Shown: positions 8,714 to 64,000 of the stretch, piece by piece | Numbering within the stretch: the stretch's first letter is position 1 | Layout of the letters: each line of letters opens with the position of its first letter | DNA from: Diplocarpon mali | Taxonomy: Eukaryota; Ascomycota; Leotiomycetes; Helotiales; Drepanopezizaceae | Assembly: GCA_024741835.1 (NCBI GenBank) | Contig: JAENRP010000183.1 | Span: 17,413-81,412 of the forward strand | Direction of reading: 5' to 3' | Length of the DNA stretch: 64,000 bases | Notes under the pieces: model-generated | The model's input: only the letters and a program-made list of their open reading frames with translations | Databases searched by the model: none | Told to the model about the DNA's origin: nothing | Position numbers and translations under genes: made by a program

Positions 8714-8781
8714 ACTTGTAGGCCGGGCCTAGGAGTAGAATCGATTTGCGCTAAAGTTACTTATAGGCCGGGCCTAGGAGT
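8714..8781 (-). repeat. Two 23-nt palindromes in a 45-bp tandem duplication (GypB)
   Basis: Palindromes lie at 8714-8736 and 8759-8781, exactly 45 bp apart, with repeated flanks. On the coding strand each reads D-S-T-P-R-P-G-L-Q-V-T in frame with pol, giving a 15-residue protein repeat between RNase H and integrase. Confidence 0.9.
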
Positions 8782-10660
8782 AGAATCGCCTTTAGTAGCA
8801 AGTACTTTTATAAAAAGCTTATTATTAGGTAAGAGCTGCTAGTGGCATAAAGCTTATTTCCTAGCCTTAAGAGAGGTTAGCTCCTAGTCTCGATATAAGA
8901 GTATATTAGCTAGCGTATTCGTTATGCCTATTTAGTATATAATAAGGAAGTTAAAATTAGCAAAGAACTCCGCCTAGCAAGCCTGCTAGGCTATTAAGTC
9001 CTTAGTTGTTATAAAGTACTTAAGGGCTTTATAGTCTATATATATATATACTATTTTCTAGGCCTTAAGTAGCTTTGCCTTATACTAGTAGAACGATTTA
9101 AAAATCGCTAGGAGCTCTTTATTATAAATAGGGTAATTTAGCTTAGCGTTATTCATTATCTTTAAGAAGTACCTAATTAGATAGTAGTTATTATCTTCTT
9201 AAAGTTAAGAGAGTACGCCAGCGACTATACTATCGGAGGCGTCGGTCTTAAGCCTTATCTGCTTTTAAGGGTAATAGTAGTATAAAATCAAGGTCGTTTG
9301 GAAGCTTAAGCGCAAAGCTTTCTAAGCTTCCTTATAAGCGTTGTTAAAATTAAAAGGAACGTTTCTTATAAGAGCTATTAAAGGTTGGCAAATATAACTA
9401 TAGCCTTTAATAAATCTTCAGTAGAAGTTACAGAACCTTAAGAAGCTTTATATATTATATATATTCTTAGCATATTTCTACTCTTAAATAACTAAGACCT
9501 TATTAAGGTCTACCTCAATTTTATAAACTCTGATAATAAATCTTAAGAACCTAGTCTTAGTAACCTTAAACTCGCTTTTCTTAATATCTGCTTAAAGGCT
9601 ATAGCGTTAGAGAATTCCTAAGATCTTCTTAATATAAATCTTATAGTTAAGGGAGTTTTTTAAATAGATTAGAATATTATTTAAGTAAGTAAAGTAAAAA
9701 TCGTTAAGGTGGTTTAAAAGAATCTTATTAATAAACCGCTAAAAGGTGGTAGGCCTATTTGTCAGCCCAAATAGCAAAACCTTATATTTATAGGTCCTAT
9801 AATACGTGCGAAAGGTAGTTAGGTCTTTGGCATTAGTTAATATGCAGATATAGTAGAAGGCTTGTTATATATCGATTTTTATAAAAATACAAGCTTTCGA
9901 TATGCGTGCTATTATCTTATTAATAAGGAGAATTAGGTAGGGGTCTTTCTTCATTAAGGCATTCAGTTTCTAGTAGTTAATATATAGATATAAGGAGCTA
10001 TTGGCTTTCCTAATAAAGAGGATTAGGGCTACTTAAAGGGAACTTAAAGCTTTAATAAATCTTTTATATAAGTTCTTAAGAATATAGCTCTTGACCTTTA
10101 AGAGCTATTTATCAGTAAGGCAATAGAGGGGTTCGATTATTAAGTTATTCTTACCTATTAGCTCGATTTTATAATCTACTCTTAGCCTGGGTTTCGATAG
10201 CTAATTAAAGGCCTAGCGACTAAAGACATTCTTGAACTTAGCGTACTAAGGTAGGAGCTTCTGGTCTATTAGCTCGTTGTTACTCTTATACTTAGCTTGC
10301 AGCGGCGAACTAAGGCCAAGGGAGCTAATTTCAGCCTGCCTAACCGATTCTCGGCGATTGATTTCTTAGCGATTGATTTCTTAATTTAAATTGTAAATAA
10401 AGCTTACAAATATAAACTTTTCAAGCGCTGGTTCTTAAATTTGTATAGCTTGTCTTACCCTAATTATAAAGTAGTAGTAGAGGGCGCCGATTACTAAGAC
10501 TAAGATTAGGCTAATCTAGTAAGCCGTCTTCGGTAAAGCATTTCTCTTTACTTAAAAAGGGAGCAGGGAGTCTAATACTTCTAATAAGGCCTTCTTTATA
10601 TAGTTCAGATCTCTTTTTAAGTCTTTAAAGAAACTGCTATCCTTAAGTCTATAAAAGGCC

Positions 10661-10773
10661 ATTTATAGGCTAGGACTAAGAGTGAGATTCGAGTTTATAG
10701 ATTTTACTCGTAGGCTAAGACTAAAAGTAGGATTTGAGATCGCAGATTTTACTCGCGGGCTAGGACTGGGAGT
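10661..10773 (-). repeat. Three 23-nt palindromes at 45-bp spacing (GypB)
   Basis: Palindromes start at 10661, 10706 and 10751. On the minus strand they form three 15-residue repeats of the type S-N-L-T-x-S-P-S-L-R-V-K-S. They lie in the region between gag and the RT core, so the arrays appear to grow by whole codons. A sixth degenerate GypB copy is at 12526-12548. Confidence 0.88.
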
Positions 10774-12750
10774 AAGATTCGAGGCATTATTACTTGCTAG
10801 CACTAAGAGCTAGGCTTAGGCCATTCTTAGGTCTTCGTCCTTAGCATCTATTATAGCTGCTTAACGATTGATATTTTACTAGGCTATTAAGGGTTTTATT
10901 AACTATAAGAGATCAATTAGTACGCATCAATTAAAGTAAAGGATAATAGGCATATCCTTAGGCTAAGAGATACTATTTTTCCCCTTTCTATAGGATTGTT
11001 TAAGGTTATAGTGCTTTAGGAACTTCTTACTAATTAAAACGTCAATTGCTCTTAAGCTTATAATTAAGAAAGGGAAGTTTATTCATCGCCTATTGATTAT
11101 AAGGGTAAGTAAGATAGCGAATCGAATGGTTTCTCCTTTAAAGCTATTATAGCCTATAAGGGTAATCGGTTTAAGCAATTTAATAAACTTCACCTTAAGT
11201 CTTTAAGAGAGCTAGTATACTAAAGACGTCTTAATAATATTGAAAATATTAGCTTTACTATTAATATAAGTAACTGTTTTAATAAATGATCTATTTTAAG
11301 CTAGTTCTATAGGAATTAAGAACTGACGGCCGCCTATTAATAAGCGGGAATTAAAATCTAAGTCTTTTTATAAATTATAACTTATACTATAATAGAAGTC
11401 TTTACTATAGCTTAGCAGTTTCCTAATAGTAGGTCGTTTTCCATCTTAACTTTAGCTATTATAAACTCGCCCTGCTTCTTTAGCTTAGGGCAGTCCGTCG
11501 TATAGTAACTAAGGGCTTTGCAGTTATAGTAGAGACTAGACAACGGCTTTAGGCTGGCAGACCTTTCTTAGTAGGCCGCCGGCGAAGGGAAATAAGTATA
11601 GGGAGCTAGGGAAGTAGCTATAGCTATAGGTCTTTATAACTCCCTTTTCAATATGCTAAGGATACGGTCCTTCGAAGGGAAGAACGCGACAGCAGGAGCG
11701 ACTTATCAAGCGTTATAAGCTTCTTCTTATTTAATATTATAGGCCTTACGGTCCGCAATAGCTAAGAACTTATTTAAAGTAGTATAATTATTATTTATTT
11801 TATACTTCTCTACTTAAAGGTCGTTCTTTAAGGCTAAGGAGACCTTTTTATAAACGTTATCGAACTAACGAGATTGATCGATCTTATTAGCTATTATAAA
11901 AGTAATAAACTTAGATTAGAACTTATTATATAATATTAAACTTATAGTTAGCCTATTGTATTTAAGCTTAGCAAACTAAATATAGTTATAGTTAAAGAAC
12001 CTTTAATCTAAAACCCTAAGGATATTAGTAGCGCATATAAACTTATTAGCAAAGATAGGATCTATATATTATAAGATTAGGTTTTAAGCTTTACCTATTA
12101 TATACTTAAAGTAAGTAATAATCTAGTCCTCTTTTAAAGTAAAGTTGCTTAAGTACTTTTAAATAAACACTTTTATAGCTATCTTCTAGGTATTATAAGT
12201 GATTTTGCCTTAGTGGTTGCTAAAATAGGTTTAAGGGTACTTAATTTAATAGGAGTTGACGGCAGGGACTAAAAGTCGGATAATTAGGAGGTAGTAGTCT
12301 AAGGGAGGCAGTAAGTCGGCGGTAAAGGCCTAAGTATTCTAAGGACTAGCACTTAAGAAAGAAGGGGCAGTAGCATTATTTTAAAGAGCAGCGGCTATAG
12401 TAATGCTAATAAGGTTTGCGATTTCGGCCTATTAAGCAGCTAAGAAGAGAGGGGCCGATATAGTAAGGGTAGACATCGGTTCTTCCTTAATTTCAATTGA
12501 TAGAAGAGAAGTATTTTAAGAATCTACTTGCAGTTTAAGACTAGGAGTGAAATCAGTACTAAAGGAGGTTTCTTCTTAAGTAGGCTTAAGAGGGGGAATA
12601 TCTTTAGGACTAGGGTTAGTAATAAGGCCTATAGAACTAATGGCTATAAGGCCTAGTAGTAGAGGTACGGTTAACCTTTCACTTCTCTTAAGTAGTATAA
12701 GATTAGAGGTTATAAGTACTAACTCTCTTTATATTATCTGGTTTAGTCTA

Positions 12751-14473: not shown

Positions 14474-14478
14474 AGAAC

Positions 14479-15110
14479 CTAATAAATTTTCTGCCTCTAA
14501 TGCTATTTCCCAATAGCTTTTTCATACCTTCTTAGATAGTGAAATGATTTAATACTTATATAGCCTTTGCTATAGGTTAGTATATTTCAAAGATTTTGCC
14601 AAGCCCCTATAGGGCATTATTAGTAGTAATATTAATTATAAAGTAGGTCCGGAAAAGTGTACTATAGGTATTACTTATAAATTGCAATAATCTTTTCATA
14701 TACTTATTCTTCTTATCTCGATTTTTCTAAAATAAATCTATTAAATTAGTATACCTTTAATATTCTTATAGAAATTTTTTATAATCAATCCCTTTTATCT
14801 TAAGCTTATTCTTAAGAAAATCATCAAAGCTTAAAAATCCTTCTTCTATAGTAGAAATTCTATAGTTCAATACTTCTATAGATGAGTTTAGGAATACTTA
14901 CTATTCTATTTTACCTAACGTTCTATAGGTAGTTACTATATCTTCTAATAATCTTAGAGCTTTTCTATCCTATGAAAAGTTACCCTTTAATATTAGTTTA
15001 TTATTAGTAGTATTTAAGGGTTTGCTATCCAAAGCTACAACTGATATATTCTTCTTAGGTATGGCTTTCTTACTTAAGCTTGGTAGTGCTATAATGAATT
15101 ATTTAATAGG
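14479..15110 (-). pseudogene. X1 ORF3, N-terminal part
   Basis: This is the minus-strand start of the second accessory ORF. It opens with a basic S-K-K-A-I-P-K-K segment and then shares motifs with the start of ORF2: F-S-Q-D, T-Y-R-T-L, F-D-D-F-L, K-G-I-D, I-A-K-A-I and G-N-S-I-R-G. It is interrupted by CopA-1 after 14479 and resumes at 248. Product unknown; see the X2 copy for the whole ORF. Confidence 0.75.
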
Positions 15111-15569
15111 AGGGGTAGTTCTAAATGAAGAGATGATTATTTAAGAAAGATTAACGATATAGGAGGCTTATACTAGAAAAGATTGATAATAAAAGATAAT
15201 AGTAGTAGTACTGGTATTATAGGTCTAGTAGGGTTGTAGAAGAAGTAAAAAAAAGTAAAATCGTAATGCAAGGAGAGGCTTATTTATAGAGTTTTAGAAT
15301 CGCGCTAGTATATAAAGGAAAAGTGGGCATAAAGAGGCTGGAGGTAGGAATAAAAGTAGGGCGTAATATATACTAGGACCTATAATTGGTAAATGATAAT
15401 TATTAAAGGTGAGGATGACATTTTAAAGGTAAGTATTAGAAAGTTATATATAAAGGAAATAATTAAAGGATAGATTATATAAAGAATAAAGTAGAGTAAA
15501 GAATATATATAGAATAGAATAATAAATAAAGAATAATAAGGTGCTAGTATATAGGAAGTAGATAATCTT
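15111..15569. other. X1 spacer between ORF2 and ORF3
   Basis: About 460 bp with no frame conserved between X1 and X2. It is rich in TTTAT/ATAAAG tracts and may hold a promoter or processing site for ORF3, but nothing specific is visible. Confidence 0.45.
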
Positions 15570-18500
15570 AAAAAAAAGATTTAATTCAAATTCGTAAGTT
15601 CTTTAAATAGTATTCTCTAAGGGTAATAGGCTAGATTCTTTAAATTGCTTAACTTAATTATCGGTTCTATTATCACTTTAGAGTCTTCTTTTCTTATATT
15701 AGTTCTTACTTCTTAGCGATTTTTCAGCTTTAGGGACCTCTTTTAAAGGATCTTCTATTAGTACCCCTAGATTTAGTAGCCGAAGTTTATCCGAACTATC
15801 TTATAGGCTAAAGCTAGCTAAGTCCAACCTCACTTGTAGGCTAGGCTTATAAGTCAGTCTTGGCGTTTCTAAGCTTAAGGGTAAAAACAGGAGATTGGTT
15901 CTTAAATTAAGGTCTAATACTATACTAGCGTCTTAGTTCGTCTCTTTTCCGAATTTTTTTATAATAATATCTTTATTAATTAGTGTATTAGGCTCTTAGA
16001 TAGCATTTATTTCATTATATTATCCTTAAGACTTAAGTCTATAAAGAAGCGACTTAGTGTTTATAATATTCGTTTAGGTATTAATAAAGGCGTTAAAGAG
16101 TTTTTAATTATATTTTATAAAGTGGATTTTCAATTCGTCTTTATTAAGAAGAAATAACTTCTATACTTTAATTATAACTAAGGGGTCTATTTAAGAGCAT
16201 CGACTAATAATGGCTTTAAAAAGGCTATTGCAGTTCTTAAGATGAAAAGCTGCTTTAAAAGGTATAGTAGTTTTGCTTGTATTAATCTATTAAGGTACTA
16301 GAGGTTACTTTAGAGTAGAGATTGAAAAGATAAGATCAGAGATTTAAATCTTATTTTCTAAAGTATTCTTATTATAGATAGTTATATAATTATTATAAAA
16401 GGCTATAAAACTACTAGTTCTATAAGAATTATTTAAAAGTATTTTAAGAAGATATCCCTATTTTATTATTACTATAATTAGATTGCTATTATTAGTAATA
16501 GGTCGCAAGATCTCCTTTTACTTTATTTTTATAGTCATTTGAGCTAGTTGAGATTTTGAATTAAGTGCTTAAGAAGTCTATCGACTTGTCTTCTTTATAG
16601 ATAAAATAAGTTTCATATTTGATTAAGAGCCGATCTACCTATTAAGGCTTTTTAAAGCGGGGCCTTATTTAATTAATAGGATCTGATAATTTAAGACTTA
16701 CTTACTAGTAAAATTGACTCGCGGGCCAGGACTGCGAGTAATAATCGGATTTTCTTTATTAGTAGTACTTATATCTTTCTTTATTAAAACGACTTAATTA
16801 TAAAGACTAAGACTAATCAATTAAAGAGGTTTAAGGTAGGCTATAAGCTAATAGGCTCCTTTACTTTTTACTATTATAATTAAAAGGTAGAGTCTATAAT
16901 ATATCCGAAGGACTTATTAAGTGAGATTAAATATTATATTATAAAGAAAATAAGAAGGTATAAAGGTTGCGTTATCTATAAGGCAGAAGTGATAAAGGTA
17001 TATCTCTACTTCTTATCTTATAATAGAGAGGAATATATTTATAAAAGTACTATTATTAGTAGTAAAATTATCGGTTAAGAAGCGGCATTCGAAGGGTTTA
17101 GGCATTACAATTGACCCTTCTTCTTCTATTTCCTCTTACTATTTATTACTTAATAATATTAAAAAGAAGGAATTGTTCTATTTAATCGACTCTAATGCCT
17201 TTAAGGCTTTAGGATTAGCCTTGAATTTTATAGCACTTAAAGATGCCTCTATTATTAATAGGTTAGATTTGCATATCTTTAAAGAGATAAAGAATTGATT
17301 ATTAAAGTAGATTAGAAAAAGATCAATATCTTTTATTATATAGAGAAGTTTAAGGTATTTAATAGTTTTATTAATATTAAAGCCTTTATAATTAAGACTA
17401 TAGTAAACTGAAAGAGAGCAAATATAAAGGTCGCAAAGTCTTCTCCCTTTGATTCTTACGCTAAGAAGATACTATTAAAAGCGAGTTTTTATTATAAAGG
17501 ACACTTGAATATTATATTATTCTTTAAGCTTAAAGTTAAGAATGACTAATTAAGGCATATTGCTATAATTATAAATATCCTAATTAATAGATTCCTCTTT
17601 GCATTCTCTTTCTTATAAGATAAAATAGTCTTACTTAGTATTTAAAAGACTAAGTTCTTAACTTTTATAATTATTAAAGAATTAAATAATATTTATAAAG
17701 GCGAACTTATTTAAGATAAGCTATTGAATCTATTTAATAGCTCTTTTAATTATCTTTAGAGCAATAGGAATAGGGTCTTCCCTTATATTATTATTTTTAA
17801 AATAGTTGTATATAAATATAAAGAAGTTAAGAACTAGCTCCTTTAAGTTATTAAGGAAGGAGTCTAATTAAGCGCGCAATCCTTTAGTTTTAAATTGCAA
17901 ATTAGCTAAGGTGGCTATTAAATAATCTATCCTTTTTAAAGGTTAAGCTAAAATAGGTCGTTTAGCTAAAGGAAAGTCATTTAAAGATTTTGAAAATTCT
18001 AAAGAGGCTGCGCTAAGTGTTTAAGCAGTTTATTTAATAGCGGTTTCTAAAATTATTTCAGTAAAAGGGAAGTTAAGTTTAGTTTTAAAATTCTTACTTC
18101 TAACTCTTAGTTTAAGACTATAAGTCAAATTATAAGGTTTAATACTTATTATATCTTTAAGCTAAAAGGCGAATTTCAAGGTAGGTTTAATTATAAATAA
18201 CTAATTCCCTTCTTTATTATTAAAGAAATCTTATTTAAACCTTAGTATAAGAGTCTAGTTCTCTTTTAAAATAAGCAAACTATAAGCAGAAACGCAAAGC
18301 CTTAGTATATTAATAATAGTACTATTAAGTAAGGTAATATCTATAGCCTAATTTGATCTTTTTATAGCTCTATTAGCTATTATAAGTACTATATTAAATA
18401 GGCCTATAAATCTGCGATTGCGAATTCGATTGCCTTAGAATTTTGCTACTTCTTTTTAAATAATAAAGAAATTAAGAATCTGAATAGCTTTAGCTATAGG

Positions 18501-18950
18501 AGTGTTTTCCTTAAGAATTTTTAATAATACTCGCCTTCTATTATTAAAATCAATATTTATTAAGAAGCGCAAACGAAATAGGAGTCCTTTTTTATTAATG
18601 GCTAAATTATCTAGTTATTGAATAGATTCTTCCCTTTTATCTTAGTCTATTTCAAAAGTATTAGCCAAGGTTATATATTAATCTGCGTCAGCTAAGAATT
18701 CCTCTTTAAAGATTCTCTTTAGTCTTAATTCTTTAGTTAAGAAGTCGTTAAATTAGAGAATTCCAGGGGCCACTTAGGTTGAAAGGTTATTAATAGCATT
18801 CGCGTAAGCTAAAAGGAGTTTTTATTACTTTATATCTCCTAAGGCTATATAAGTTGATTTAAAGCTCTTTAATAATATAATAGCTCTACTATCTTAAGAG
18901 AAGTTTATAATTAGTATTTATTTATCCCCTATTGCAGTAGATAAAACCAT
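15570..18950 (-). pseudogene. X1 ORF2, large accessory ORF downstream of pol
   Basis: The start is ATG 18950-18948 (M-V-L-S-T), conserved in X2 at 35370. The frame then runs about 1,120 codons on the minus strand with only RIP-type stops. Differences from X2 are largely conservative at the protein level, which supports past coding function. It contains three palindrome copies (15832, 16717 and 18103), read as T-x-x-(P/L)-x-(L/P)-R-V. No transmembrane segment, signal peptide or known catalytic motif was recognised; the C-terminal third is rich in Lys, Ser and Asn. It occupies the place of env in errantiviruses but does not look like an envelope protein. It is homologous to ORF3. Confidence 0.75.
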
Positions 18951-21900
18951 TTATAAGTTCTTTAAAGGCATATTACTTATAAAAGATAGGAAGTATAAAT
19001 AAGAGAGTTTAATAGGGTATAAGAATTAAAAGGGTATATAAGTTGCAATAGGTTTACTATATATATATTAAGGAAATTGGACTTTTTATTTATTATTTAA
19101 GGAAAGTAATAGGAATACTATAATTAAAGGCTAATATTAAAAATATAAAATAAGTCAAAGTAGATAAGAATTTAAGGTAATCTTAAAAGATCTATATCTT
19201 AAATAATAAAGTAGGCAACTTTGTTAAAAATGTAAAAATAAGGATTAAAGGAAGGTAAGATAATTGATAGGCTAGGAAATCGTTTAATATTCCTATTTGC
19301 GTTCTTTAGATATTTTAAGAATAATGACTTAAGGTTGCGATTAATTAGGTATTTTAATATTTTTTACTTATAGGATTAGCTTATAGGTTAAGTTAGAAAA
19401 ATCTTAGTCTTCGTCTAAGGGTTCAAAATTGCTTATATTACTATCGGTTCTTATAAAAGATTCGGAAGTTGTATCAATTTCTAATTCGTCTTTTAAAGGG
19501 AATAAGGTCTAGTCGTATTAATAAAAGCACTTTAATCAGTTGGCTGCAAAGGTTCTTTTAATATCGATTCTATTAAGTTCCTAAAGAGAATAGTATCCCT
19601 TTTCTTTCTACTTAAATTTAACCTTAAATAAGCTAAGCTATTAATAGTCAAGTTTAGTATCTGCTAATATATTAATACTTCTTATAATATTATAAACTAG
19701 GATAAGATTATCTTTTTAAATAGGGTAAGTCTTAAGTACTTTAAAAGCAGCCTACGCTTCCTTAGCTTTTTCTTAATATTGTTTCTTTTACAAAATAATC
19801 TCTTTTATATTTATATCTTAGAGCTTAAGTTATTAGTATCTTATTATAAGTAAATCGGAATAGTTCTAAATTTGACTATAGTTGAATAATCTTTAAATAG
19901 GCTATTAAGATTTAAAAGGGAGCTATGCCTCTTTATTATAGATAAGGAAGAATAGTATAACTCTAATTAGTTTATAGATTATCGTTTGATAAGTAAAGAG
20001 TATTTTATAAAAGCGTTTTATCTAATCCTTAAATCCTTTGCAAGTAACTTTAGATAGACTATTAAAAATATTATAGTATCCTTATTTTACTACTCTATTA
20101 GCTTTTGAGTTATATACTAAGATTTGAACCCGCTTAATGCTATATTTTCGCAAGAAAGCTTTAACTACTCCTTTGTTTTTAAGGCTTCTATTAATAGTTA
20201 GTCTTTTAAAAAGTCTATAGCAATAGACTACGTCTTCTTAAAGGAACTTTGCAATAGATTTAAAGTTAGCAGATCTTAAAGGTTATCCTTTAGGCTATCT
20301 TAATAGGTCTTCCTTTACTAGAATAAAATATATTATCCTATTCTTAGTAGTTAATACTTATATAATATTAAGGCTGACTTTATAAAAAAGGTCTAATATT
20401 TAGGTTAAGAATAGGAGATTCTCCTTATAATTAAGTTTTCATTTCTAATAAAGGATACAGCTTTTTATAAAAGCTTTATAATCCTTAAAAGAACCTTTTT
20501 AAAAGAATTTTCTTAAAAGCCGATAGTAAGTAGACTTAGCTCCTTAATAGCCTATCTCCTTATAAATATCTTAAATAGCCCTAGCTTACAATTTATTATT
20601 ATTTAAATAGAGTTATATAGGAAATAAGTTATTACTCCTTTTAAATAACTGCCTTCCTTATATTAGATAAATTAAAGCTTTAGCTTTAAACTTTTGAAAA
20701 TCCTTAAAAGAAACTATCTTTAATCGTTTAAGTATAATTAAAAATTTTATAATTTCTTTAGAATCACTTAAGTAATTAGGTAATAAAATCCTTTTATTTG
20801 ACTCGCGGGCTAGGCTTGCAAGTTAGGTCCCTTTAAGGCAATATATTAATAGATAATTAACTTTATTCTTTACCTACTTATTAATATCTATTTCGTCTTC
20901 TTTAATCAAATTAAAGGGGTAGGGACGAATTCTTCTTAAAAGGCTATTAGCGGCGGTATTTTTTATTCTTAAAATGTATTTGACTTTAAAGTCCATTAGT
21001 CTTATCTAAGCGATCTATTTTATTAGTAAAGCTCTTAATAGGTCGCTTATAGCTCTATTCAATTATTCTACTAGCACTTTAGCATTAGTTTTAAGGATGA
21101 AGTAAATGCTATAAAGGTTGCTTCTTATCTTTTTCATTACCTTTAAAGCGCCTTTACATTCCTATTTAATAGTATTATACTTTATTTCTATTAGATTTTA
21201 AAGACTACTTTTAAAGTAAGCTAAATGTCTTTTCTATTAGCTATTAGCTTATTAAAAGATAGTACTTTATTTAATTAAGCTTGCGTTAACTATTAGTATA
21301 ATTAGCCTAGCGTCGGCTCTATAGTCTATTTTAATTAGATATAGCGCTTTAAGCAACGCTTACTTTAGTTATTTCATAGCCTTTATTTAAGGTTCCTCCT
21401 ATTGAAACTTAGCCCCTTTCCGAAATAAGGTATAAATAGGTACTGCCTTTTTAGCGAAATCCTTAATTTAAATGCAATAGTATACTATAAAACTAATAAA
21501 CGCGCGAGCTTCTACTACGTTATTATACCTCTTCTATATATCAATTTTAAGTACTTTAGCCCTTTAAGGACTTCGGCCATTGGAATCAGTAATAAAACTA
21601 ATAATTTCTATCGATAGAAGATAGTATTATAACTTTAGACTAACTATCGCTTTTGTCCTTTCGAATTATATAAGTACCTAGTTTAGGTTTTAAATATATT
21701 CTATTATAAATCATTATATACTAAAGAGAACTTCTTTATAGTTATAGAATAATCTGAATCCTTTTACTCTTATATTATTTATATAAGAAAGTATAATATT
21801 AGGTATATAATCTACTAGTATTTTATAGATTATTTAAATAAATTGAGCAATTGAATTTATAGCCCTTTAAGGTAATCTTATTATCTGAAGTAGCTTAAAA

Positions 21901-24900
21901 GGGATTTGAATTACTATTATATCTTTTAATTTAATATTAAGAATAAATTAGTTATATTTAAAGAAGAAGTTAATAAAAGAGCTATAGGTTAATCCTATAA
22001 ATTTATTTAAGAACTTATCTATATTTAAAAGAATATTAGTATCCTTAATAGTTATTTGGTTTATCTCTATTACTACTATTATTAGTTTATAAATTCCCTT
22101 TTCTTTCTTAATAACTAAGAACCATTTATTCTTATAAGGGCTATTATAGAATTTGAGAATGCCTTATTTTAGCTTATCCTTTAATATTTCGATTACCTTT
22201 TCTTAAAGAGCTTTATAAACTCTAAATGTTTTCTCTTATTAGGCTTTATAAGGTATTATCTTAATCTTAATATAAGGCGTAACCTCTTCTTAAAGCTAAT
22301 TAAGTTCTATCTAATCAAAAGCTAAGGCGTCCTTTTGATTTATTAAGGTTTTATAAAGTAGTTCGCGTTTTTACTTTATTAGGTTATCTTTAATTTTTAA
22401 TATATCGAAATGCTCTTTTATTAGCCGATATCTAATAGGTTTATTAGAAAATCTGCTTATAATAAATTTATCGAATTTGCCACTTAATTTTAAAGGTCGA
22501 AGCTTCTTATCTTATTTAAACTAATCATCTAATCCTTTAGGCTTTAAGCTATTAGAGATTCCCTAATCTATTAATTATACTTTATCTACTTTACTTTTAT
22601 ATATAATTCGAATATTAGCTAATACTATACTTTTCTACTTCTTTCCTTTTTTATTAAATCTTATAAAACGGTTTGAATTTTCTTTTTAAAAATAAATAAA
22701 AGATTTTCTAAATTGTTAATTTAAAGTATATAAATAGAAATATTATTAATAATTTTATTATTTTTCACTTGCGGGTCTGGCTTATAAGTGGTTTTTAGGT
22801 TTTTTAAAATAATTAGTAAATTATCGAAATTTGTAAAACGAACTCTCTTTTCTACCTTATTTTTCTTTTTTCTTAATTATTAAGCTAATAAAACGCCGAT
22901 TGTACTATTCTTTAAAATTCCAGATTTGACTCTTAAGCTAGGATTGCGAGTTAAATCGCTATTATTTAAAATCGGCAAACTTACCTTCCTTTTGCTATAA
23001 CTCCTTATTAAGTGCCTTCTTTTACTAGCATTAAGCCTAGCCCTTATATTAGCTAATTATTTCTTAAAACCTTATTTTAAAATTCGGCTATATCTCTTAT
23101 AATAACTATCTATCCTTTTAAAAATTGATCTATATTTTAAAAACTAGCTTTTATAAGACTATCTTTAAGATAGTTAAATATTAGCTAAGATTTTAAAATA
23201 AAAGGCATTTTTAAAAGAATATTATTTAAAGAATTCTTTATTATTAAAAAGTTAGTATAATTAACGATCCCTTTAACTTTAACCTTTACGTTTTTTACCT
23301 ATTTATTAAAATTGTATTTCAATCTAAAGATAGTCGAATATATAAGAAGTCGATCGCTAATAATTATTAATTAAGCTATTTCTACTACTTTTCTAATTAT
23401 TATATTAACTTTTGAATTATAATTAATCAAAGCCTTTGCTTTAACTAATTCTTCTATTAAATAAATAATAATAGGGCTTTTTATTACAACTATTAAACAA
23501 TTTCAATTAATATTCTAAGATATTAAGGCTATTGCTATAATATTATAATACCTTTAGGTTCCTTTGTCTTTTGCAATCTAAAGATATTTGATTAAGGCTA
23601 AGTGCTTTTTAAAGTTCTTTTATATTCTAATTTCCATTTCTTTATTATTATTCAAATCTTTAAAGGTAATTAAGATATGCTTTCTTAGCACTTTATTAAA
23701 GCGTTTAATTAAACTAAATAGGTCTTTAAATATAAGGTTAATTTATTAAGTTATAATATTCTTTATAGCTTTCTCTATTACAATTGAACTAGCGTATTTA
23801 TTAATGAATTTTTCCTATTTTAATATCTATCTCTTTCGCTTAAGGTCAGGGGTCTGCGTAATAACTTCAACTTCTTAATCTTTAAGCTTAAAGCTATCTT
23901 TATCTATTATATCTTTAATCAATTTATCTACTATATCGGCTTTATCCTTATCTACTATAGTTTTAGACTATTAGGTATCTTTTAATATTTGGACTTTATA
24001 TTAAGATTCTTAAGTTGCATATGCTGATTTCTGGACTTTAGCTAGTTTTATTAGTATTAGTAGAGTAGAAGATCTAAAAGGACACTAAGAATTCTAAGGG
24101 TTCTTAGATATAGAAGCAATATTAATATTAGTTGAAATATTATTATTAACTTATCTTAAGATAGAGATGCCTTTAACTTTTATAGCTATTTAATTAGAAG
24201 CTAAGTCCTTAAGAACTCCTTTAAGTAGATTGCTAATTGGACTTATATATATATAAGTTAGAATTTTAGCATTTATATCTATAATATACTATCGTTCGAT
24301 TAAATTCTCATCCTATTTTATATTATATATTATTATTTAAATAGTCTATAATTATAAGTGATTCTAGTGCTTTTTAATAGGGATAGCTTTTAGCCTAGGA
24401 TCTTTAATATAAAGTATCCTATACTTATTAATATATATAACCCTTATATTAATAAAATGTTAGAAAAGAGGATATTCATTATAATACTTATATAAAAGGC
24501 AATTGGGTTCCTTATTATTGCAAAAGTTGCAAGTTAGTCTTCTTCTATTACTATTTTCTTAATACCTTATAGTATTAATATTAGCAGAGTGCTAGTTAGG
24601 ATTAATTTCTCCTTCTTTAATTAACTATTATATTCTTATATTAGCTGGTTATTCCGAATGATAAAAAGGAGGAGTCTAATAATAAGAATTACTAGGTTAG
24701 CTTATAGTAGTTGAGTTTTGCCTATTATTAAACTAAGGAATATGCTATTTTTCTTATAAGAGATTATTAATCCTAGTTTCTAAGCTTTAGATTTAGAGTT
24801 TTATAAATTAGGTCTTAAGTTCCTTAATCCTAAGGTTGGATCTTACTCTTAAGTTAGGCCTGCGAGTGAAAGGTATGACTACTAAGTTCTTCTTTATCTC

Positions 24901-25876
24901 CTTTATAACTTCTAAAGCCTTTGAGTATTCTTAGACTAGGCTCTTAAGGTCTTTAGTATAAGAGGGAGTAAGGGCTTTTTCTTACTCTATAGTATTAATA
25001 GTTCTCTTACTAAGATCTGATTTTAAAGTAAAGGCTAAGAATTCCTTAAATAAGGCAAAGGTTATAAGGTCTTGCTTATTAATCCTAAAATGCTTAATGA
25101 TCTTATTTTAAAGGCTAGTAGGTAATCTAAGTAAGAAAAGGCGGCCTCTTTCAACTTCGCTAAGTATTTTCTAGCTGATTAAGGTATTTAATATATAAGT
25201 AAAAGTCCGATAGTAGTTCTTAAGTTCCTTAGGAGTCTAGGTGATTAGAACAAATTCCTTTAAGAAAGTTAGAGTATTGCAAATCTACTATTTATCAAAT
25301 TTATAGAATTTAGACTTAAGAGCTTTAATAAGGAGTTCTTATAAATTATATATTTTCTATTTAAGAAGGGATTTAATAATATCTTTACTTATATAGTTAT
25401 AGTAATAAGGGAGCTAAGAAATCATATCTGCTTATAAAATATTAAAATCGTAATAAGTTTCCTTATATTGCTTAAGGAAATTAGTAATATTAGCTCTTAT
25501 AAAGTGAGAAGCACTAAGGGAACTAAGGAAAGGAAAGTGGCTAGTAATAGCCTTAAATGTGGCTATTATCGTTTTATACTAATTATCTAAGTTAATAGAA
25601 TCTATAGAAGGCAAAAGGGAAGCTTTAATATTGCAAGATTAATTGCTAAAAGGAGTACTTCGAAATTCAAAAGGGCTTAAAGAACGCTTAGAATCCGAGT
25701 TAATCTTAAAGTGATTAAGATAAGTTTAAAAAGATTTAGATAAAGGGTTAGTGAAAAGTTTAAAATTGTTATTATTTTTAGTATTTTCTAATATTAATAT
25801 TAAAAAAGTAGGTAGTAGTCTTAAGTTGTTTAAGGACGTCTTTTTATCCTCTTACTTATAGGCTAGGCCTAGGAGT
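15832..25876 (-). repeat. Nine dispersed 23-nt palindromes in X1
   Basis: Copies start at 15832, 16717, 18103, 19366, 20801, 22767, 22929, 24845 and 25854, each 23 nt. The best ones have 11-nt arms, ACTCGCGGGCC on one side and its complement on the other, around one central base. All nine have a counterpart at the same place in X2, so they predate the split of the two copies. They fall in gag, pol and ORF2. Confidence 0.9.
19235..23600 (-). pseudogene. X1 pol (protease, RT, RNase H, integrase)
   Basis: On the minus strand: protease about 23420-23100, with A-L-I-N-Y-N-S-K-V-N replacing the usual D-D/S-G core; reverse transcriptase about 22350-21450, with a mutated DDI box followed by R-V-K-G, typical of one fungal gypsy lineage; RNase H about 21400-20850; integrase about 20650-19900, with V-Y-N-S-K-A-N and F-F-L-I-Y-N-K-E-A; a C-terminal tail to about 19235. 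No chromodomain was seen, unlike GypB and GypC. Frames are broken by TAA/TAG. A roughly 285-bp gap separates the end of pol from the ORF2 start. Confidence 0.85.
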
Positions 25877-26000
25877 AAAATTTCGGATTCTGCTAAAAGT
25901 TTAATCTACGTTTCTTAAGAGATTTTAAGTAGATGCTAAATAGCTAATAGGAGTATTATGATTAATCGCAATAAGATAAAGTTTACTTAATTAAGGACCA
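23601..26000 (-). pseudogene. X1 gag region
   Basis: The minus-strand gag corresponds to the better-preserved X3 gag at 62325 onwards. A zinc-knuckle remnant (C-N-F-C then a later Cys) lies near 24545-24515. The long stretch between this and the protease is coding by homology to X2 but has no recognised domain. Confidence 0.7.
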
Positions 26001-26053
26001 ATTTCTAAGATAAGGTTTATATATAAGATTCTTCTTAGCCTTTAGGCTAATTC

Positions 26054-27445: not shown

Positions 27446-27696
27446 TATATTATAAAACAGAGGGGGGACAACACAAGAATAGGCCTAAGGGAAGACCTAA
27501 AAACCAGAGGAGGAAGCACCATAAGCAGGCTCTCTTAGACAAGATATTAGGAATAAGTCCCAAGTATGGGGTATATTCAATACTTATAACGACGCGCGCT
27601 GTCTCTATATATAGAAGATGGCCCTTTTATCCTCCTACTGTCCTACGCCGATTATATGATATATATTATAAAACCTATCTATCTTAGGTCTTTATA
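27446..27696 (-). repeat. X2 3' LTR, truncated
   Basis: This matches the last third of the LTR at 42469-43222 (plus-strand orientation), including the TCTATATATAGAAG TATA-like box near 27610. An apparent 95-codon plus-strand ORF over it is non-coding LTR sequence. The left boundary is approximate. Confidence 0.82.
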
Positions 27697-28044
27697 TATA
27701 TCTTAAATAATAAAAGTAGTAGCCTCTACTACTATTAATAAAGAATATAAAATAATATAGGTTAAGGTAATAGTATATCAATCACTAGTAAACCCTAAGT
27801 GCGAGAAAACTAATATATTAAAAGGCCTAAATTAGGGCTATATTATTATTAAAGGTAAAAGGAAAAAAAAGAAGAGTTTTTNNNNNNNNNNNNNNNNNNN
27901 NNNNNNNNNNNNNNNNTTTTATATATGCACTTTTTACCTATAGGCTAGGCCCAGGAGTTAGAAAACGAAACTAGCAAAATAAACAAATAAGCTATAAAGT
28001 CGTAAAAACAATTAAAAATAGTACTAACCTAGATATCAATTTTC
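27697..28044. other. X2 3' untranslated region with assembly gap
   Basis: This lies between the ORF3 stop and the 3' LTR. It includes a homopurine/homopyrimidine stretch at 27856-27881, 35 Ns at 27882-27916, and a palindrome at 27936-27958. The low-complexity run may have caused the gap. Confidence 0.6.
27882..27916. other. Assembly gap (35 N)
   Basis: A run of N adjoining an A/T homopolymer-rich stretch; the true length is unknown. Confidence 0.99.
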
Positions 28045-31000
28045 CTTAGTTCTCTTTAAAGGATAGGAAGAACTATTACCAGATAATACTCTCTTTATAA
28101 AGCGCTTACTTTTTCTTAATAGTTTACTATTAGTATTAGAAGAGTCTGGTCTTGGTATTATAAGAGCTTTAGTATTTCGTAAAGATGCTAGTATAATTTA
28201 ATAGCTTTTACTAATAAGGAGGGAGACTTGTATTATAGCATTATTATAATTATCTTCTTTATTATTATTATCATCCTTTGGAAAGTCATCTGCTATTAAG
28301 GGAGACGCAGTAGGAGATTCTATAGCCACAACCTCCTTAGCCTTGGCTTTCTTTAGATTAAGTCGCAGGCTGGGCCTAGGAGTCGTATTAAGGGTTTTTA
28401 TATAAGGCTTTTTAATGCTATACTTCTTAAGAAGAATTATCTTATCAATCATATTATCAGCCTTAATATTATTATTAATGCCTTTCGTCTTAGCCTAGGA
28501 TTTGTCCCTATACAGTTATAGCTTTAAGTATTAAATTAGTTTCTAAGTATAGGTAAAATTATTAAAAAGTTCTTACTTATACTTCTTCAAATAGGTTATT
28601 AGCTAACCTATATCTTTGGATAGCAACTCTTTCATTATTATTACCACTAATAGATCATTCTATAGTTGTCTCCTTATAAGTGCCTTTAATAGTGGGCTAC
28701 CTTTTATTATACTAAGTATTATACGAAACTTGGCTGACGATTCCCTAGTAATACTCTATCTTATAGTGCTCGGTTTCTTTATACAAATGGACTTAATATA
28801 AAACTCATCTAGGTCGGCACCATTTTCAAGTGAGTTATTACTAATAACTTCTATATAGTTGTTACTAATAGTAAGGAACCTACCTTTTCCAGGCTCTTTT
28901 GCCAGACTTTAAGTTAACGAATGTTCCTTATCTTATAAATATAAAGAATAAGGTAGTCTTATTAGAGATATATTCCTTAAGTAGTATCCTAGTCTTAGTA
29001 TTCAATTCTTTCTACTGTATTGCGTTTTATACTAGATTTAGTAAGACCTATTAAGTATTCTTTAAGCGCAAGAGGGTAAAAGCTAATAATTTATAGGATT
29101 TTTCCTATATAGCAAATTCTTTAGTTGATTGTTTTACTATAGGTATTATATAGTAATCGATAGTCCTGCTATTAGGGGAGCTAACCCGCAAGCTGGGCCT
29201 AGGAGTTAGCCTTACGAATCTTATATTAGCGTTAATCTTAGTAGAAATAACTCTCGAATAGTAGTTAATACCTATAAACTATATAGCCTTAGGATACGCT
29301 ACTAGCTTATGTAAAGAATTATAGTAAGTTAATAGAGCATTAAGATATAGCCTATAGTATATCCTTAAAGTCTGTTGTATTAAACTGTAAGTTATATTAT
29401 AAAAGAAGGTAGAAGGAGGGGAAGGCTTCTTATTTAAGATTCGGAAATAGTGCTTATATATTTCCATTTCCTCTTATGCTAATGTTAAAAATGAATTCTT
29501 TCCTTAAGAACTATAACTATGCGTGCGAATTATACTTAAGAATGCGTAGCTAAATAATTTAAGTATATTTAAGAAACCCTTAGTATAAAGCGATATTAAA
29601 GTATCCTTAGTTAGTATCGTTTTATACTAGGCAAGAGTCTAAGCGATATTATAGAATAATTTCAAAGCCTTAAGTGCTACTCTAAACTTAAAGAAACCTA
29701 GCGATATATCTTTTTTAATCTAATTGGCTATTCTATTACTAATAGCTACTATCGCATGATTTCTAAGGTATAATAAGAATAATCTTAGATTAGGAGCAAT
29801 GTAAAATTTATAAAGGTTAGATGATACTTCTTTGTTAGTAATGCCTATTAATGCTAGTCCGTAGTATAGTGCATATTATCGTTTATAAAGGGCATAAAAT
29901 TTCTTAAAATAGAAGTCTTTAAATATCCTTATTATAAATTTACTTAAGCGAGTTTTCATTTCTGGTATTACTATAACTTTAAATTTATTATTATACTATA
30001 GTATCATCTTAACGTTAAGAGGGACTTAATAATATTCTATAGAGATTATTGTTATAGTATCTTTAGGCTTCTCCTTAAGCATATAGTAGTCGCCCTTTGA
30101 TTTCTTATAGTCGATAAAGAACTATATAATATTATCTAAAGAGAATTCGTCTTATTATAGTTTTATAATCTATTTAACAGCTCTTGCTATTACCTTTTAT
30201 ACTAATAAAATATCTCCTTGGTTTTCCTTTTTCAAACGCTTTATTATAGACTTATAGAATTTTAAAATAAACTTTTACAAATCTTTAAAAAAGGTCTATA
30301 CGATATTAGATATATCCTTTTTAGTATTATTAAAAATTTTTAATATATTAGTAATAGGGCTATCTACTTTATCTGTCAGCTTATCTTCTGAGTCTATATT
30401 ATTACATGTTCTGACCTATAGGCTAGGCCTACGACTCGATTTACTTGCTATTAGTATTTAAGGTATTCGGGGCATTTCTAGGGACGGTAATTCAAACTCG
30501 TCTAAGTTAGAAGATAAGTGGTTAGGCTAGTATTCTACTTAAGCTTTAAGTATTATAAGCACCTTATACTTAAGGACTTCTTTATCATATGCTTCTTCCA
30601 CTCGTAGGCCGGGCCTATAAGTTAAGTTGGGCTCGTTTATTAATTCGGCTACTAATAGTAGTAGCTTTGCGGCGGCAGGGATAATAAATTCCCATTTCTC
30701 TGTTTTATTATCAAAGTAGTTTATAGTATACTCGGCGAGATAAATCATCTTTTCTTTTATAATAAGTAGACTGTATTATAATTATTATAAGCCGAGCGTG
30801 TCTAGAACTATTTGATTAAGGAGTGTAAAATTATTATACTAGGCGGGGCTATCTTTTATAATCTAAATAGTAGAGTATATAATAGTACTTAAGAAACCTA
30901 TAAATTTTCTACCTTGCGTACTATTTCCCTATAGCTTTTTTATACCCTCTTAAATAGTGAAATGATTTAATACCTATATGGCCTTTGCTACTAATTAATA

Positions 31001-42468: not shown

Positions 42469-43222
42469 AATTCCTATTAGTCCTTAGAATAAAAGGGTCT
42501 TTAAAGACGATTCTAAGGTAGTTTTTAGAGTTCTATTAAGCTAAGGCAGTTGAATTATCAAATTCGGATTTTTAAAAATTCTAAGGAGGTACTTTTAATT
42601 AGAGTTTACGCTTAGTATTATTTAAGTATTCGAAACTACTACTATTTGAGATTGCTATTATAAGGTTCGCCAAACTTTTTATATTAAGAAGCCGAAAATT
42701 CCGAAAATCTTAGAGTTAAGGAAGAAAATAGGGGTTTTTAAAGCAGAGCCGAAAAGGGAAAATCTAAGGTTATTAATAGTTATTAAACGAAAATCGACAG
42801 TTTTAAGTAACTGGGCGATTAAGGATAAGGTTTTTAGAATTAATTAAAATGCTATAAGTGTTTTAAAGATATATTTTTTTTTTTAAAAGGCCGGTCTCTT
42901 AATTGCAAACTAAGAGATCGATAAGGTCGTATAGGAATAGAAATCTCAAGAAATCGGTCCCTGCGTAGGTTACTAATATAAAATAGAAGGGGAATAATAT
43001 AAGAATAGGCCTAAGGGAAGACCTAAAAACCAAAAGAGGAAGCACTATAAGCAGGCTTTCTTAAATAAGATGTTAGGAATAAGTCCTAAGTATAGGGTAT
43101 ATTTAGTACTTATAGCAACGCGCGCTATCTTTATATATAGAAGATGGCCCTTTTATCCTCCTACCGTCCTACGCCGATCATATGATATATGTCATAAGAC
43201 CTATCCATCTTAGGTCTCTATA
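42469..43222 (-). repeat. X2 5' LTR
   Basis: 754 bp, matching 44088-44839 and, inverted, 61457-62247. On the minus strand it starts TATAGAGACC (original TGTAGAGACC) and ends GGAATT. The TATA-like box is near 43130. 43223-43227 (ATATA) would be the target duplication, but the partner is lost. Confidence 0.9.
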
Positions 43223-43890
43223 ATATAATAAATGTAATACGCATTAAAGGTACTATTAAAGTACTAATAATTAAGATTATTAGTACTCTTATATATAATA
43301 TAGCGCATATATGCGTTATTATATTCTATTATAGGCTCTAGTATATAACGCGCAGCAGGGGCAGGGCTCTTAGGCGGCAGCGGTAGTAAAGGCGGCAGCA
43401 GGGGCGGCGGCAATAGTAGCAGCGGCTTATTACCTAGCAGGCGCTAAGACGAGTGCGCTAGGGTTGCAGCTCCTAAGGGAGCGCTAGCGACTTAGCGCAA
43501 AGTCAGTATAACGCAAGGTATAAGGGCTCTAAGGGTCTTACTTTATAAGGGCGGCTAGGGCTATAATAAGTAAGAGTTCCTTTTATATTTAAAAATTATT
43601 AGTATAAAGATAATATTTTTAAATAATAAAGGAGGGTTATTTTTAAAAGAAGGGAAGGAGAACCTCTATAATAGAAATACTCTATAGGAAGCCTAATAGA
43701 GTACTAGCATAGAATTGCAAAGATTCCTAAGCGCGCTTATTACCTATAGCGACCCTTCTTATTTTAAAAGGAACGACCTCTAAAGGAGCAGTATATAAGA
43801 TAAAGCCTCTTTTCTTTATAACTGCTATTCTTTCTTTTATTTTATCTATATAATTAAGCGATTCTAAAAGCATCGCCTAATTAAGGGGTA
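43223..43890 (+). other. Y internal 3' region, no clear gene
   Basis: It includes a GC-rich GCAGCAGGGGC/GGCGGCAG repeat tract (about 43345-43450) that largely escaped RIP, and a polypurine TTAAGGGG right before the 3' LTR. The minus strand over the GC-rich tract is open and Cys/Arg- or Ala-rich depending on frame; too little supports a gene call. Confidence 0.5.
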
Positions 43891-61456: not shown

Positions 61457-62247
61457 TGTAGAGACCTGGAAGTGGAGGATCTTATGATATAGGTCATATG
61501 GTCAGATGAGGACCAAGAAAGGGGTATATATAGGATTACTATTGTACTTAGAGATAGCGCGCAATGCCAACTACCTATTCTACCCCTAACGAGTGATTTG
61601 TCCTAGTTCTATCTTCGGAGAGCCCGCTTATAGTGCTTCCTCCCTTTTTGTCTTTAGTCTTTACGTAGGCCTATTCTCAGGTGTTATTCCTACTTCCTTT
61701 TATATTAGTGACCTACGCAGGGACGATTCCTTTGAGATTTCGTCTTTATACGACTTTTCCTCTTGATTCTCTTGGTTCGCAGATAAGAGATCAACCCTTT
61801 GAAAAACCCTCTTAAGATAATAATCACTTAGTTATTTGGAACTATTAGTTGTTATTCCTTTATTATCGACTTTGCAATCACTTAGTTATTTGGAACTGTC
61901 GATTGCCACTCTCTACTATTAATAGCCTTAGATTTTCTTATTTCGGCCCCTATTCCGACTCTCCTACCTCTGATCCGACAAAGCTTAAATTGTCAGCTTA
62001 TTGGTACGATTGTCGGATTCCTAGCCTTTCTAATATAAAGAAGTTTAATTAGTTATAATAGCTACTTTAAACAATAGCAGTTTCGAGTATTTATATAATA
62101 CTAAACGAAAGCTCCAATCGGGAGTGTCTCCTTAGCTTTTTTAAAAAGCTAAATTGGATACTTCAGCTGCCTCCATTTGATAGAACTTTGAAAACTGCCC
62201 TAGAATCGTCTCTGGAGACCCCTTTATTCTAAGGACTAATAGGAATT
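61457..62247 (+). repeat. X3 5' LTR
   Basis: 791 bp, starting TGTAGAGACC and ending near GGAATT. It is the inverse of 42469-43222 and 44088-44839. It is longer than those partly because AATCACTTAGTTATTTGG is repeated at 61822 and 61876. TATA-like GTATATATAGG near 61518. Plus-strand ORF 61849-62052 lies within it and is not a gene. Confidence 0.88.
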
Positions 62248-62324
62248 GTCCTAGAAGCTAAGATGAATCTTTCTTAGAAACTTTATCTTAGAAATTAGTC
62301 TTTAACTTAATAAACCTTTTCTTA

Positions 62325-64000
62325 TTGCTAGTGATTGCAGTACCTTTATTTGTTGCTTCGTACCTATTAAAGAAGTCTTGGCAAAGTATAAATAAACTTT
62401 CTGCAGAAGCTGGATTTTCACTCCTGGGCCGGGCCCGCGAGTGGGAATCTAAAAATGCAATTTTATATAACTCGAGTTCTTTACCTTCCCCTTCTATACC
62501 TTCTCCTTTAACACCTTCCCCTTCGACAACTGCACCTGCTTTCTTAATGTCGACACCTGAAAATACTAAAAATATCAATTTTAAACCTCCTTCCGACCCT
62601 TTGCCCGAATCTTTTCAAGCTCGCCCTAGTCACTTTGAGATTGACTCGGATTCTGAAAACTCCTTAGAACACCTTAGGCCCTGTATTCGACCTGACTCCC
62701 CTCCTGTCGAAACGAATAAAGCGATAATAGCCGCCTTTAAAGCTATTACTAATCATTTTCCCCTCCTTAGTTCCTTTAGCGCTCCTTATTTCACTAGAGC
62801 TAATATTACTGATTTCCTTAAATAATATAAGGAGACTTATTATGATTTCGGCATTAGATATAATAAAATAATCAATCGACTTCTCTGCTACTGCGATTAA
62901 ACTAGTAAAGATATTATTAAATCTCTGCTTAAGTAGAAGCTTCGCGAGTCCTAGGAACTACTCGTTAAGGCTCTTAAAGCTGAATTTCGGGAATTTGATA
63001 GATAGTAGATTCGCGACACTTTGGCCTTTCTAAAGGAGTTTGTTCTTATTACTCGCACTCCTAAGGAACTTAAAAATTATTGTCGGACCTTCACTCGAGT
63101 GTCGAATACCTTAATCGACTAGAAAATACTTAGCGAAGTTGAAAGAGGCTGCCTTTTCTTGCTCGGATTACCTACTGGCCTTTGCAATAAGATTATTAAG
63201 AATTTTAAGATCGATGAATAAGACCTTGTAACCTTTGCCTTATTTAAGAAGTTCTCGGCCTTTGCTTTAAAATCAGATCTTAGTGAGAGAACTATTAATA
63301 CTATAGAATAGGAAAAAGCCCCTACTCCCTCTTATACTAAAGACCTTAAGAGCTTGGTTTAAGAACACTTAAAGGCTTTAGAAGTTATAAAGGAGGCAAA
63401 GAGAAATCCAGTAGTAATTCCCTTTACTTGCAGTCCTGGCTTAGGAGTGAAATCTGCCTTAAAAATCAAGGAACTTAAAGCCTAGTTTTCTAAACTCCGC
63501 ATCTAACGTTTGGAAACCTCAATCGAAGGCCTTTTTTAGAAAACTTATTACGCCCCTTAGTTTGGAAATCGATAGGCTCTAGAAGGTAAAAACCAGCATG
63601 CGAACTCTAAATACCCAAATCTAGCTTCCCTTAGGTTGAATAAGCGAGTTGCTACCTTAGAAAGGCTTAATAAACGTCTATATTAAAGGAATTCCTAAAT
63701 TGTTAGTCGAATTTTATGCGAAGCTTGAATTTTCTTTGGCGAGGACGCCTCTTAAGTTGGTTAGGGCATATATGCTTAGGATTACTTGAAATTGTCTTCG
63801 AATTTTCCTTGAAATTGCGATTTGATAGCTTTAACAACTTTGAGCTTTTGACTCGCGGTCCTAGACTAGGAGTCGCATTACTAAAGGAGGAAAAAGGAGT
63901 TTTTATTATTTTATGCGTTTACTACTGCACCTCCTCCCTTCTCCCTCTCCCTTTATATATTTCTTTGAAATCCACTTGCGGGCCCGACCCGTGAGTTAAA
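62325..64000 (+). pseudogene. X3 gag (fungal Ty3/gypsy type), 3' end beyond window
   Basis: ATG 62325 opens 166 intact codons with a short hydrophobic start and a Ser/Pro-rich linker. They run into the capsid-like region (N-I-T-D-F-L-K, then Y-C-D and I-I-K-S-L), the usual D-G-x-N-I-T-D-F-L-x-x-Y of fungal gypsy gag. The frame continues beyond 62825 through scattered TAA/TAG to about 63710: E-F-D-R, L-K-E-F-V and F-T-C-S-P-G-L-G-V-K. A further open frame (63716-63994) includes T-R-G-P-R-L-G-V. The palindrome at 62420 is read in a different frame (S-L-L-G-R-A-R-E-W). From about 63550 similarity to X1/X2 fades, suggesting a divergent subfamily. Confidence 0.75.
62420..63996 (+). repeat. Four 23-nt palindromes in X3
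   Basis: Copies at 62420-62442, 63426-63448, 63851-63873 and 63974-63996. The first is nearly perfect: arms ACTCCTGGGCC and GGCCCGCGAGT around a single G. The first two match X1/X2 sites in place; the last two lie where X3 no longer aligns to them. Confidence 0.9.

What the first reader, a model, noticed from the sequence alone, without database searches (positions are those of the whole stretch)
8714..63996. A 23-nt coding palindrome dispersed at least 33 times through two gypsy families
Seen: GC-rich palindromes of a constant 23 nt (11-nt arms of the type ACTCGCGGGCC, one central base, then the complementary arm) at 6 sites in GypB, 9 in X1, 14 in X2 and 4 in X3. They sit inside gag, pol, ORF2 and ORF3. 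Most are read in the same frame as T-x-x-P-x-(L/P)-(R/G/Q)-V; the 62420 copy uses another frame. None was found in CopA, CopB, GypC or Y. Known: Rickettsia palindromic elements insert in-frame in genes, and fungal mitochondria carry GC-rich palindromes. Inference: this is a nuclear, protein-tolerated palindromic mini-element that spread within or between retroelements, perhaps by template switching at hairpins. Its conserved frame suggests selection against disruptive insertions.
Basis: partly seen in the sequence, partly recalled or inferred. Interest (0 to 1): 0.88.

Follow-up and report, generated by a model that had tools for sequence, protein, structure and literature searches.

The report
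GC-rich coding palindrome multiplied in retrotransposons
A short GC-rich near-palindrome that spells a Gly/Pro-rich peptide occurs again and again inside the proteins of at least two unrelated jumping-gene families of a fungus, an unusual nuclear example of a protein-coding palindromic repeat; how it spread is not settled.

Summary
In detail: all 33 reported sites exist. None is a perfect palindrome today; most of the imperfection is C/T and G/A change, as RIP gives. The sites lie in decayed Gypsy elements (GypB, X) and an X relative (X3) of a fungus whose closest named protein relatives are Diplocarpon coronariae. Genome-wide, three forms have 2,839 exact matches (402 aa, 2,397 ab, 40 bb) and none with the pattern reversed. 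Five contigs (2.07 Mb) have none. Intact D. coronariae proteins carry T(R/P)GPGPRV-like peptides at six of the window's positions. Many copies are inherited: X1/X2 share nine of nine sites, 20 of 20 further ORF3 copies chosen by protein homology have sites A and B, and two paralogous ORFs of X share two sites. Yet the motif is in two families with no detectable sequence similarity, in different frames of the same pol linker, and one array has two to four 45-nt units in different copies. Best reading: a coding palindrome that multiplied inside Gypsy ORFs by tandem duplication (shown) and recopying (inferred). No empty site was found; a binding site or selected linker peptide remain possible.

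The parts
7102..12600 (-). GypB gag-pol (degenerate; 5' limit not determined), holds sites 8714, 8759, 10661, 10706, 10751, 12526
   Evidence: 33% aa over 853 columns, E=2e-90, to the Gypsy at 44831-47281; 68% to D. coronariae P0008/P0009; gag resembles P0014
8714..8781 (-). two palindromes 45 nt apart in the RNase H-integrase linker of GypB pol
   Evidence: P0008/P0009 have two copies of the peptide here
10661..10773 (-). three palindromes, 45-nt tandem array between protease and RT regions of GypB
   Evidence: other copies have 2, 3 or 4 units
12526..12548 (-). palindrome near the gag N terminus of GypB (P0014: DFTPGPGPRVDS)
14476..26053 (-). X1 as far as it aligns with X2, 9 sites: 15832 16717 18103 19366 20801 22767 22929 24845 25854; X1 continues at 252-1
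   Evidence: 87.5% identical to X2 over 11.6 kb, nine sites shared, no 23/24-nt gap
27448..43233 (-). X2, giant Gypsy element between ~0.26-kb repeats (27448-27708, 42974-43233) that may be its LTRs; 14 sites
   Evidence: a third copy of the repeat lies at 44589-44837
36852..37809 (-). X2 pol: RNase H and Integrase_H2C2
   Evidence: Pfam PF17919, PF17917, PF17921
37221..37243 (-). palindrome in the RNase H-integrase linker of X2 pol, frame 1 (=20801-20823 in X1)
33001..34964 (-). X2 ORF2 (span aligned), with site A 34522-34544 and site C 33136-33158
   Evidence: paralogous to ORF3, 27-36% aa over the longer segments
28201..31600 (-). X2 ORF3 (span aligned), site A 30600-30622, B 30414-30436, C 29184-29206, D 28361-28383
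   Evidence: homologous to intact D. coronariae P0128-P0131
27936..27958 (-). palindrome near the 3' end of X2, frame not assignable; assembly gap beside it
32251..32272 (-). X2 counterpart of 15832, one base lost
35786..35808 (-). palindrome at the end of X2 pol (=19366)
39188..39210 (-). palindrome, X2 (=22767)
39349..39371 (-). palindrome, X2 (=22929)
41265..41287 (-). palindrome in the gag region, X2 (=24845, =63426)
42274..42296 (-). palindrome upstream of gag, X2 (=25854, =62420)
61618..64000 (+). X3, relative of X in the gag region (about 69-78% nt); sites 62420 and 63426 shared with X1/X2, 63851 and 63974 beyond the homology

Best explanation
The 23-mer is the core of a GC-rich, near-palindromic coding repeat (about 35 nt with its conserved flanks) that multiplied inside the ORFs of at least two Gypsy families of a Diplocarpon-like fungus. 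Read in frame 0, in either orientation, it gives T(R/P)GPGPRV-like peptides, which sit for example in the RNase H-integrase linker of pol and in low-complexity stretches of ORF3. Shown: the number of units in one GypB array differs between copies in 45-nt, in-frame steps; many sites are shared by related elements and ORFs. Inferred: RIP made today's degenerate form; new positions and the second family were reached by recopying of the unit (recombination or template switching between retroelement RNAs or cDNAs), which may also keep copies alike.
For: 2,839 exact matches and 0 with reversed patterns; no match listed in contigs C2, C3, C5, C11, C14 (2.07 Mb; about 119 if spread evenly; relies on the capped listings being in contig order). 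20 sampled 10-kb stretches: 0 hits with the aa pattern at <=3 mismatches, 1 with four patterns (L007, 3 mismatches). 20 flank clusters (one is that L007 hit, one lumps 62 mostly array units); 30 contexts by a looser rule (at least two duplicates). X and GypB share no detectable similarity but both have the motif in the RNase H-integrase linker, in different frames. Both ab and ba relative to the coding strand. Same purine/pyrimidine haplotype at 8714, 8759 (GypB) and 25854, 27936, 29184 (X). GypB array: 2 units in L053 and L059, 3 in window and L084, 4 in L079, 2 plus a truncated one in L069.
Against: No empty site. 20 of 20 ORF3 copies chosen by protein homology have site A (0-2 mismatches) and site B (1-3); X1/X2 share nine of nine. 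The looser comparisons (site B against ORF2; pol linker against P0010-P0020) are in linkers of variable length. Sites A and C look older than the ORF2/ORF3 split yet stay alike, unlike neutral insertions. The haplotype argument is weak: sites were chosen for likeness to the motif, and 2 of 8 X1/X2 orthologous pairs also differ. Copies are not independent events, nor are frames within arrays and paralogs.
Confidence: 0.45

Rival explanations
1. A cis-acting nucleic-acid motif: the near-palindrome is a binding site (DNA, or an RNA hairpin) for a protein of the elements or the host, kept in many copies along the element.
For: Dyad symmetry extends into flanks that the search pattern did not fix; sites A and C conserved in paralogs; both orientations; one coding site in another frame, and 25854 and 27936 perhaps outside ORFs; five hand-picked 35-nt stretches (four sites, one on both strands) fold better than the shuffle mean, z -1.9 to -5.9.
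Against: Positions 9 and 15 do not covary (G-C 14, T-C 7, G-A 5, T-A 4; Fisher p 0.69); most exact matches are the asymmetric form; at site B of many ORF3 copies the outer arms have changed while intact proteins keep (S/T)RGPGPRV; the frame bias is unexpected. The near-invariance of positions 3 (28 of 30) and 21 (30 of 30) is partly made by the search pattern: in the 20 copies chosen without it, position 21 of site A is G in six.
Confidence: 0.25
2. A selected linker peptide: T(R/P)GPGPRV is useful between folded parts of these proteins, and the DNA symmetry comes from its codons and from descent.
For: Frame bias; position in linkers; peptide kept with conservative change in intact proteins (TPGPGSRV, SRGPGPRV, TPGPGPQL).
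Against: The X pol site in frame 1 encodes another peptide; a peptide alone does not predict flank symmetry; in the pol linker it is clear only in P0008, P0009, P0014 and, as a variant, P0010.
Confidence: 0.15
3. Plain descent: all copies derive from one ancestral element with several sites, plus tandem duplication, without recopying between places or families.
For: Shared sites in X1/X2, X/X3 gag (two), ORF2/ORF3 (two) and 20 of 20 ORF3 copies; X and GypB both have a site in the same linker.
Against: That site is in frame 1 in X and frame 0 in GypB; the nearer relative of GypB at 44831-47281 has none; many positions have no counterpart in the other family.
Confidence: 0.15

Closest known systems
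Rickettsia palindromic elements (RPE)
   Same: Palindromic repeats inserted in frame in ORFs, each with a conserved peptide (passages of PMC10969869).
   Different: RPEs are ~150 bp and bacterial; here 23-35 nt, in a eukaryotic nucleus, found so far in repeats.
PARCEL (palindromic amphipathic repeat coding elements)
   Same: Tandem coding repeats whose DNA has dyad symmetry, in some taxa associated with mobile elements (abstract of PMC2996958).
   Different: PARCEL units are 25 residues and amphipathic; here 8 core residues in array periods of 13-18 residues, Gly/Pro-rich.
Sirevirus repeated-motif boxes
   Same: Many palindromic boxes, most with a CGG-CCG core, in one group of LTR retrotransposons (passages of PMC2829016).
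   Different: Those lie in LTRs and beside env in plant Copia elements; these lie mostly in ORFs of fungal Gypsy elements.
VANC-bound motifs of VANDAL transposons
   Same: Short motifs of one transposon group bound by a sequence-specific protein (search listing and start of abstracts of PMC5735166 and PMC10398659; details recalled).
   Different: No binding protein was sought here.
Mitochondrial GC clusters of fungi (recalled)
   Same: Short GC-rich palindromes in AT-rich DNA.
   Different: Mitochondrial, not in nuclear retroelements.

Membership tests
Rickettsia palindromic elements | palindromic element of about 150 bp | tested here: not met
   core 23 nt, alike over about 35 nt
Rickettsia palindromic elements | in frame within coding sequences | tested here: met
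   15 of 22 window positions assigned by homology, paralogy or flanking domain: 14 frame 0, 1 frame 1
Rickettsia palindromic elements | clean presence/absence between orthologous genes | tested here: inconclusive
   no empty site found
PARCEL | 25-residue amphipathic tandem repeat | tested here: not met
   array periods 39, 45, 48, 54 nt, Gly/Pro-rich
PARCEL | coding DNA with dyad symmetry, mobile-element association | tested here: met
   window sites lie in Gypsy-type elements
MITE / palindromic transposon | target-site duplication | tested here: inconclusive
   bases -1 and 24 are identical in 10 and complementary in 10 of 30 contexts; no empty site
MITE / palindromic transposon | dispersal outside other mobile elements | tested here: not met
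   none listed in five contigs (2.07 Mb); one 3-mismatch hit in 200 kb sampled
Sirevirus repeated motif | palindromic boxes in non-coding DNA of Copia elements | tested here: not met
   mostly in ORFs of Gypsy elements
Gypsy LTR retrotransposons (hosts of the repeat) | pol order RT-RNase H-integrase | tested here: met
   X: RNase H and H2C2 by Pfam, RT by alignment only; GypB: by homologs

The most novel reading that the evidence does not exclude
A protein-coding palindromic mini-repeat that parasitises retrotransposons: it moves within and between unrelated Gypsy families in their RNA/cDNA phase, is tolerated because it reads as a similar Gly/Pro-rich linker peptide in either orientation, and builds up to about fourteen copies in one element.
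Probability: 0.3. Interest if true: 0.8.

Novelty: new variant of a known kind. Interest (0 to 1): 0.6.

Why it matters
In-frame palindromic repeats are known from bacteria, and palindromic boxes from plant Copia retrotransposons. A nuclear one written into retrotransposon proteins, with thousands of matches in the repeats of one genome, would record how short sequences are copied between retroelements, and whether a DNA symmetry can persist under a reading frame and under RIP. Intact relatives exist in D. coronariae, so it can be tested without touching the damaged copies.

Tried and rejected
Chance: rejected. Strict hairpin pairing: not supported. Empty sites were sought in X1/X2 (15), X3 (37), ORF2/ORF3 (46), GypB/GypC (52), relatives of GypB pol (54) and 20 ORF3 copies chosen by protein homology (82, 84): none found. 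The 13 ORF3 copies had been picked because they have site A, so they say nothing about it; 12 of them have site B, and in L040 unrelated sequence, with palindromes of its own, begins before it. P0014 lacks the 10661 array and neighbouring residues, and P0130 lacks about 63 residues with site C; either may be a gene-model intron, so neither is counted. A linker-length comparison found anchors in 21 of 120 proteins and was dropped. Transversions within families (clusters of 4 to 40 copies, poor matches and the centre base left out): 79 of 9,372 in the core, 977 of 25,986 in flanks over 9 clusters, but 3 of the 9 had more inside than outside: weak support. Pfam on GypB used the plus strand, the wrong one, so its empty result says nothing. 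Peptide expression: 6 of 127 proteins hit; P0012 and P0054 look like chance. The protein searches scored only part of their candidates (7994, 7993, 7992); one search lists 120 of 303. Literature searches: no title or abstract start listed describes this motif; three papers holding one of two 11-mers were judged by title. In PMC11527701 (passages) 'palindrom', 'gypsy' and 'repeat-induced' do not occur.
Full report
What is there. The window is C183:17413-81412 of a 49.4-Mb, 676-contig genome. It is AT-rich with RIP-like dinucleotides (TpA/ApT 1.50, (CpA+TpG)/(ApC+GpT) 0.58) and has only two stop-free stretches of 150 codons or more. All 33 sites of the finding were located. Their arms pair in purine/pyrimidine code in 9.8 of 11 positions on average, but in only 7.1 by Watson-Crick rules, so the imperfection is mainly transition change, as RIP would give (inference).

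Hosts of the repeat. X is a Gypsy element on the minus strand with RNase H and integrase zinc-binding domains. It has two further ORFs that are paralogs of each other (27-36% aa over the longer segments). GypB is also on the minus strand; its pol is 33% identical to the Gypsy at 44831-47281, which has no site, and 68% to D. coronariae proteins. X and GypB had no match to each other in the translated self-comparison at E 1e-4. X3 is a relative of X in the gag region. The species is not shown: the best named matches of GypB pol and ORF3 are D. coronariae, but the best of 41 scored copies of intact P0128 in this genome is 74% identical with 31 stops. I infer Diplocarpon or a near relative.

Spread. 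Exact matches: 402 aa, 2,397 ab, 40 bb; all reversed controls 0. Free combination of arms would give about 540 bb; copies are not independent, but the 30 contexts are also 21 ab, 8 aa and 1 bb (13 of 179 hits were left out first, and at least two contexts are duplicates). Contigs C2, C3, C5, C11 and C14 do not appear in the three listings; those are cut after about 100 rows but run in contig order. The families outside the window were mostly not identified.

Descent. X1 and X2 share nine of nine sites, one with a lost base. ORF2 and ORF3 share sites A and C, in purine/pyrimidine code 0.87 and 0.91 alike, against 0.53-0.62 around A and upstream of C and 0.75-0.77 downstream of C. The flanks there were compared without gaps, which lowers them. 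The two sites seem to predate the paralogs and to have been conserved or homogenised since.

More than descent. In the RNase H-integrase linker X has the motif in frame 1 and GypB in frame 0, twice. GypB array copies have two (L053, L059), three (window, L084) or four (L079) 45-nt units; L069 has two plus a truncated one. Other arrays have periods of 39, 45, 48 and 54 nt; L040, L049 and L058 have spacings of 61, 64 and 66 nt, not all multiples of three. Non-homologous sites share purine/pyrimidine haplotypes (15832, 20801, 30600, 63974; 8714, 8759, 25854, 27936, 29184; 34522, 39349, 63851), while sites A and C differ between ORF2 and ORF3. This is weak: sites were selected for likeness, and 2 of 8 X1/X2 pairs differ as well.

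Peptide or nucleic acid. Of 22 distinct window positions (my tally) 15 have a frame fixed by homologs, a paralog or the flanking domain: 14 in frame 0, one in frame 1 (p 2e-6 if independent, which array units and paralogs are not). Five more look like frame 0 by stop counts (24845 ambiguous on one side), and 25854 and 27936 are unassigned. Flank symmetry was not imposed by the search; invariance within the core partly was. Positions 9 and 15 do not covary.

Relatives. P0128-P0131, four D. coronariae proteins and the only hits of the ORF3 search, carry the peptide at up to four positions. P0008, P0009 and P0014 (D. coronariae) and, as a variant, P0010 (unnamed) carry it in GypB-type proteins; Drepanopeziza P0033 and P0037 did not match.

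Verdict. A real, abundant and unusual repeat. Gain or loss of units in place is shown, inheritance is well supported, recopying between places and families is inferred, function is open.

Noticed in passing
window 250-14476: A nested LTR element (about 254-14471, ends TGTTGC...CGACA, 169-bp alignable terminal repeats) sits in ORF3 of X1 with what looks like a 5-bp target duplication AGAAC.
   Followed up: partly
window 28201-34964: X carries two further ORFs that are old paralogs; no Pfam match at 0.01 in three minus-strand frames of 27920-35600; the four protein hits for ORF3 are all Diplocarpon coronariae.
   Followed up: partly
L061, L071, L076, L087: Another repeated sequence has palindrome-coded arrays just before a KRGRP-containing, AT-hook-like stretch (motif recalled).
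   Followed up: no
L048, L057, L074, L086: Arrays of five to seven palindrome units with 39- and 48-nt spacing.
   Followed up: no
L040: In this X copy unrelated sequence with three palindromes of its own interrupts ORF3 between sites A and B.
   Followed up: no
window 27882-27916: Assembly gap of 35 N beside the 27936 site.
   Followed up: no
window 42469-43218 and 44088-44835: A 0.75-kb direct repeat (85%) next to the X2 end, possibly part of a further copy.
   Followed up: no
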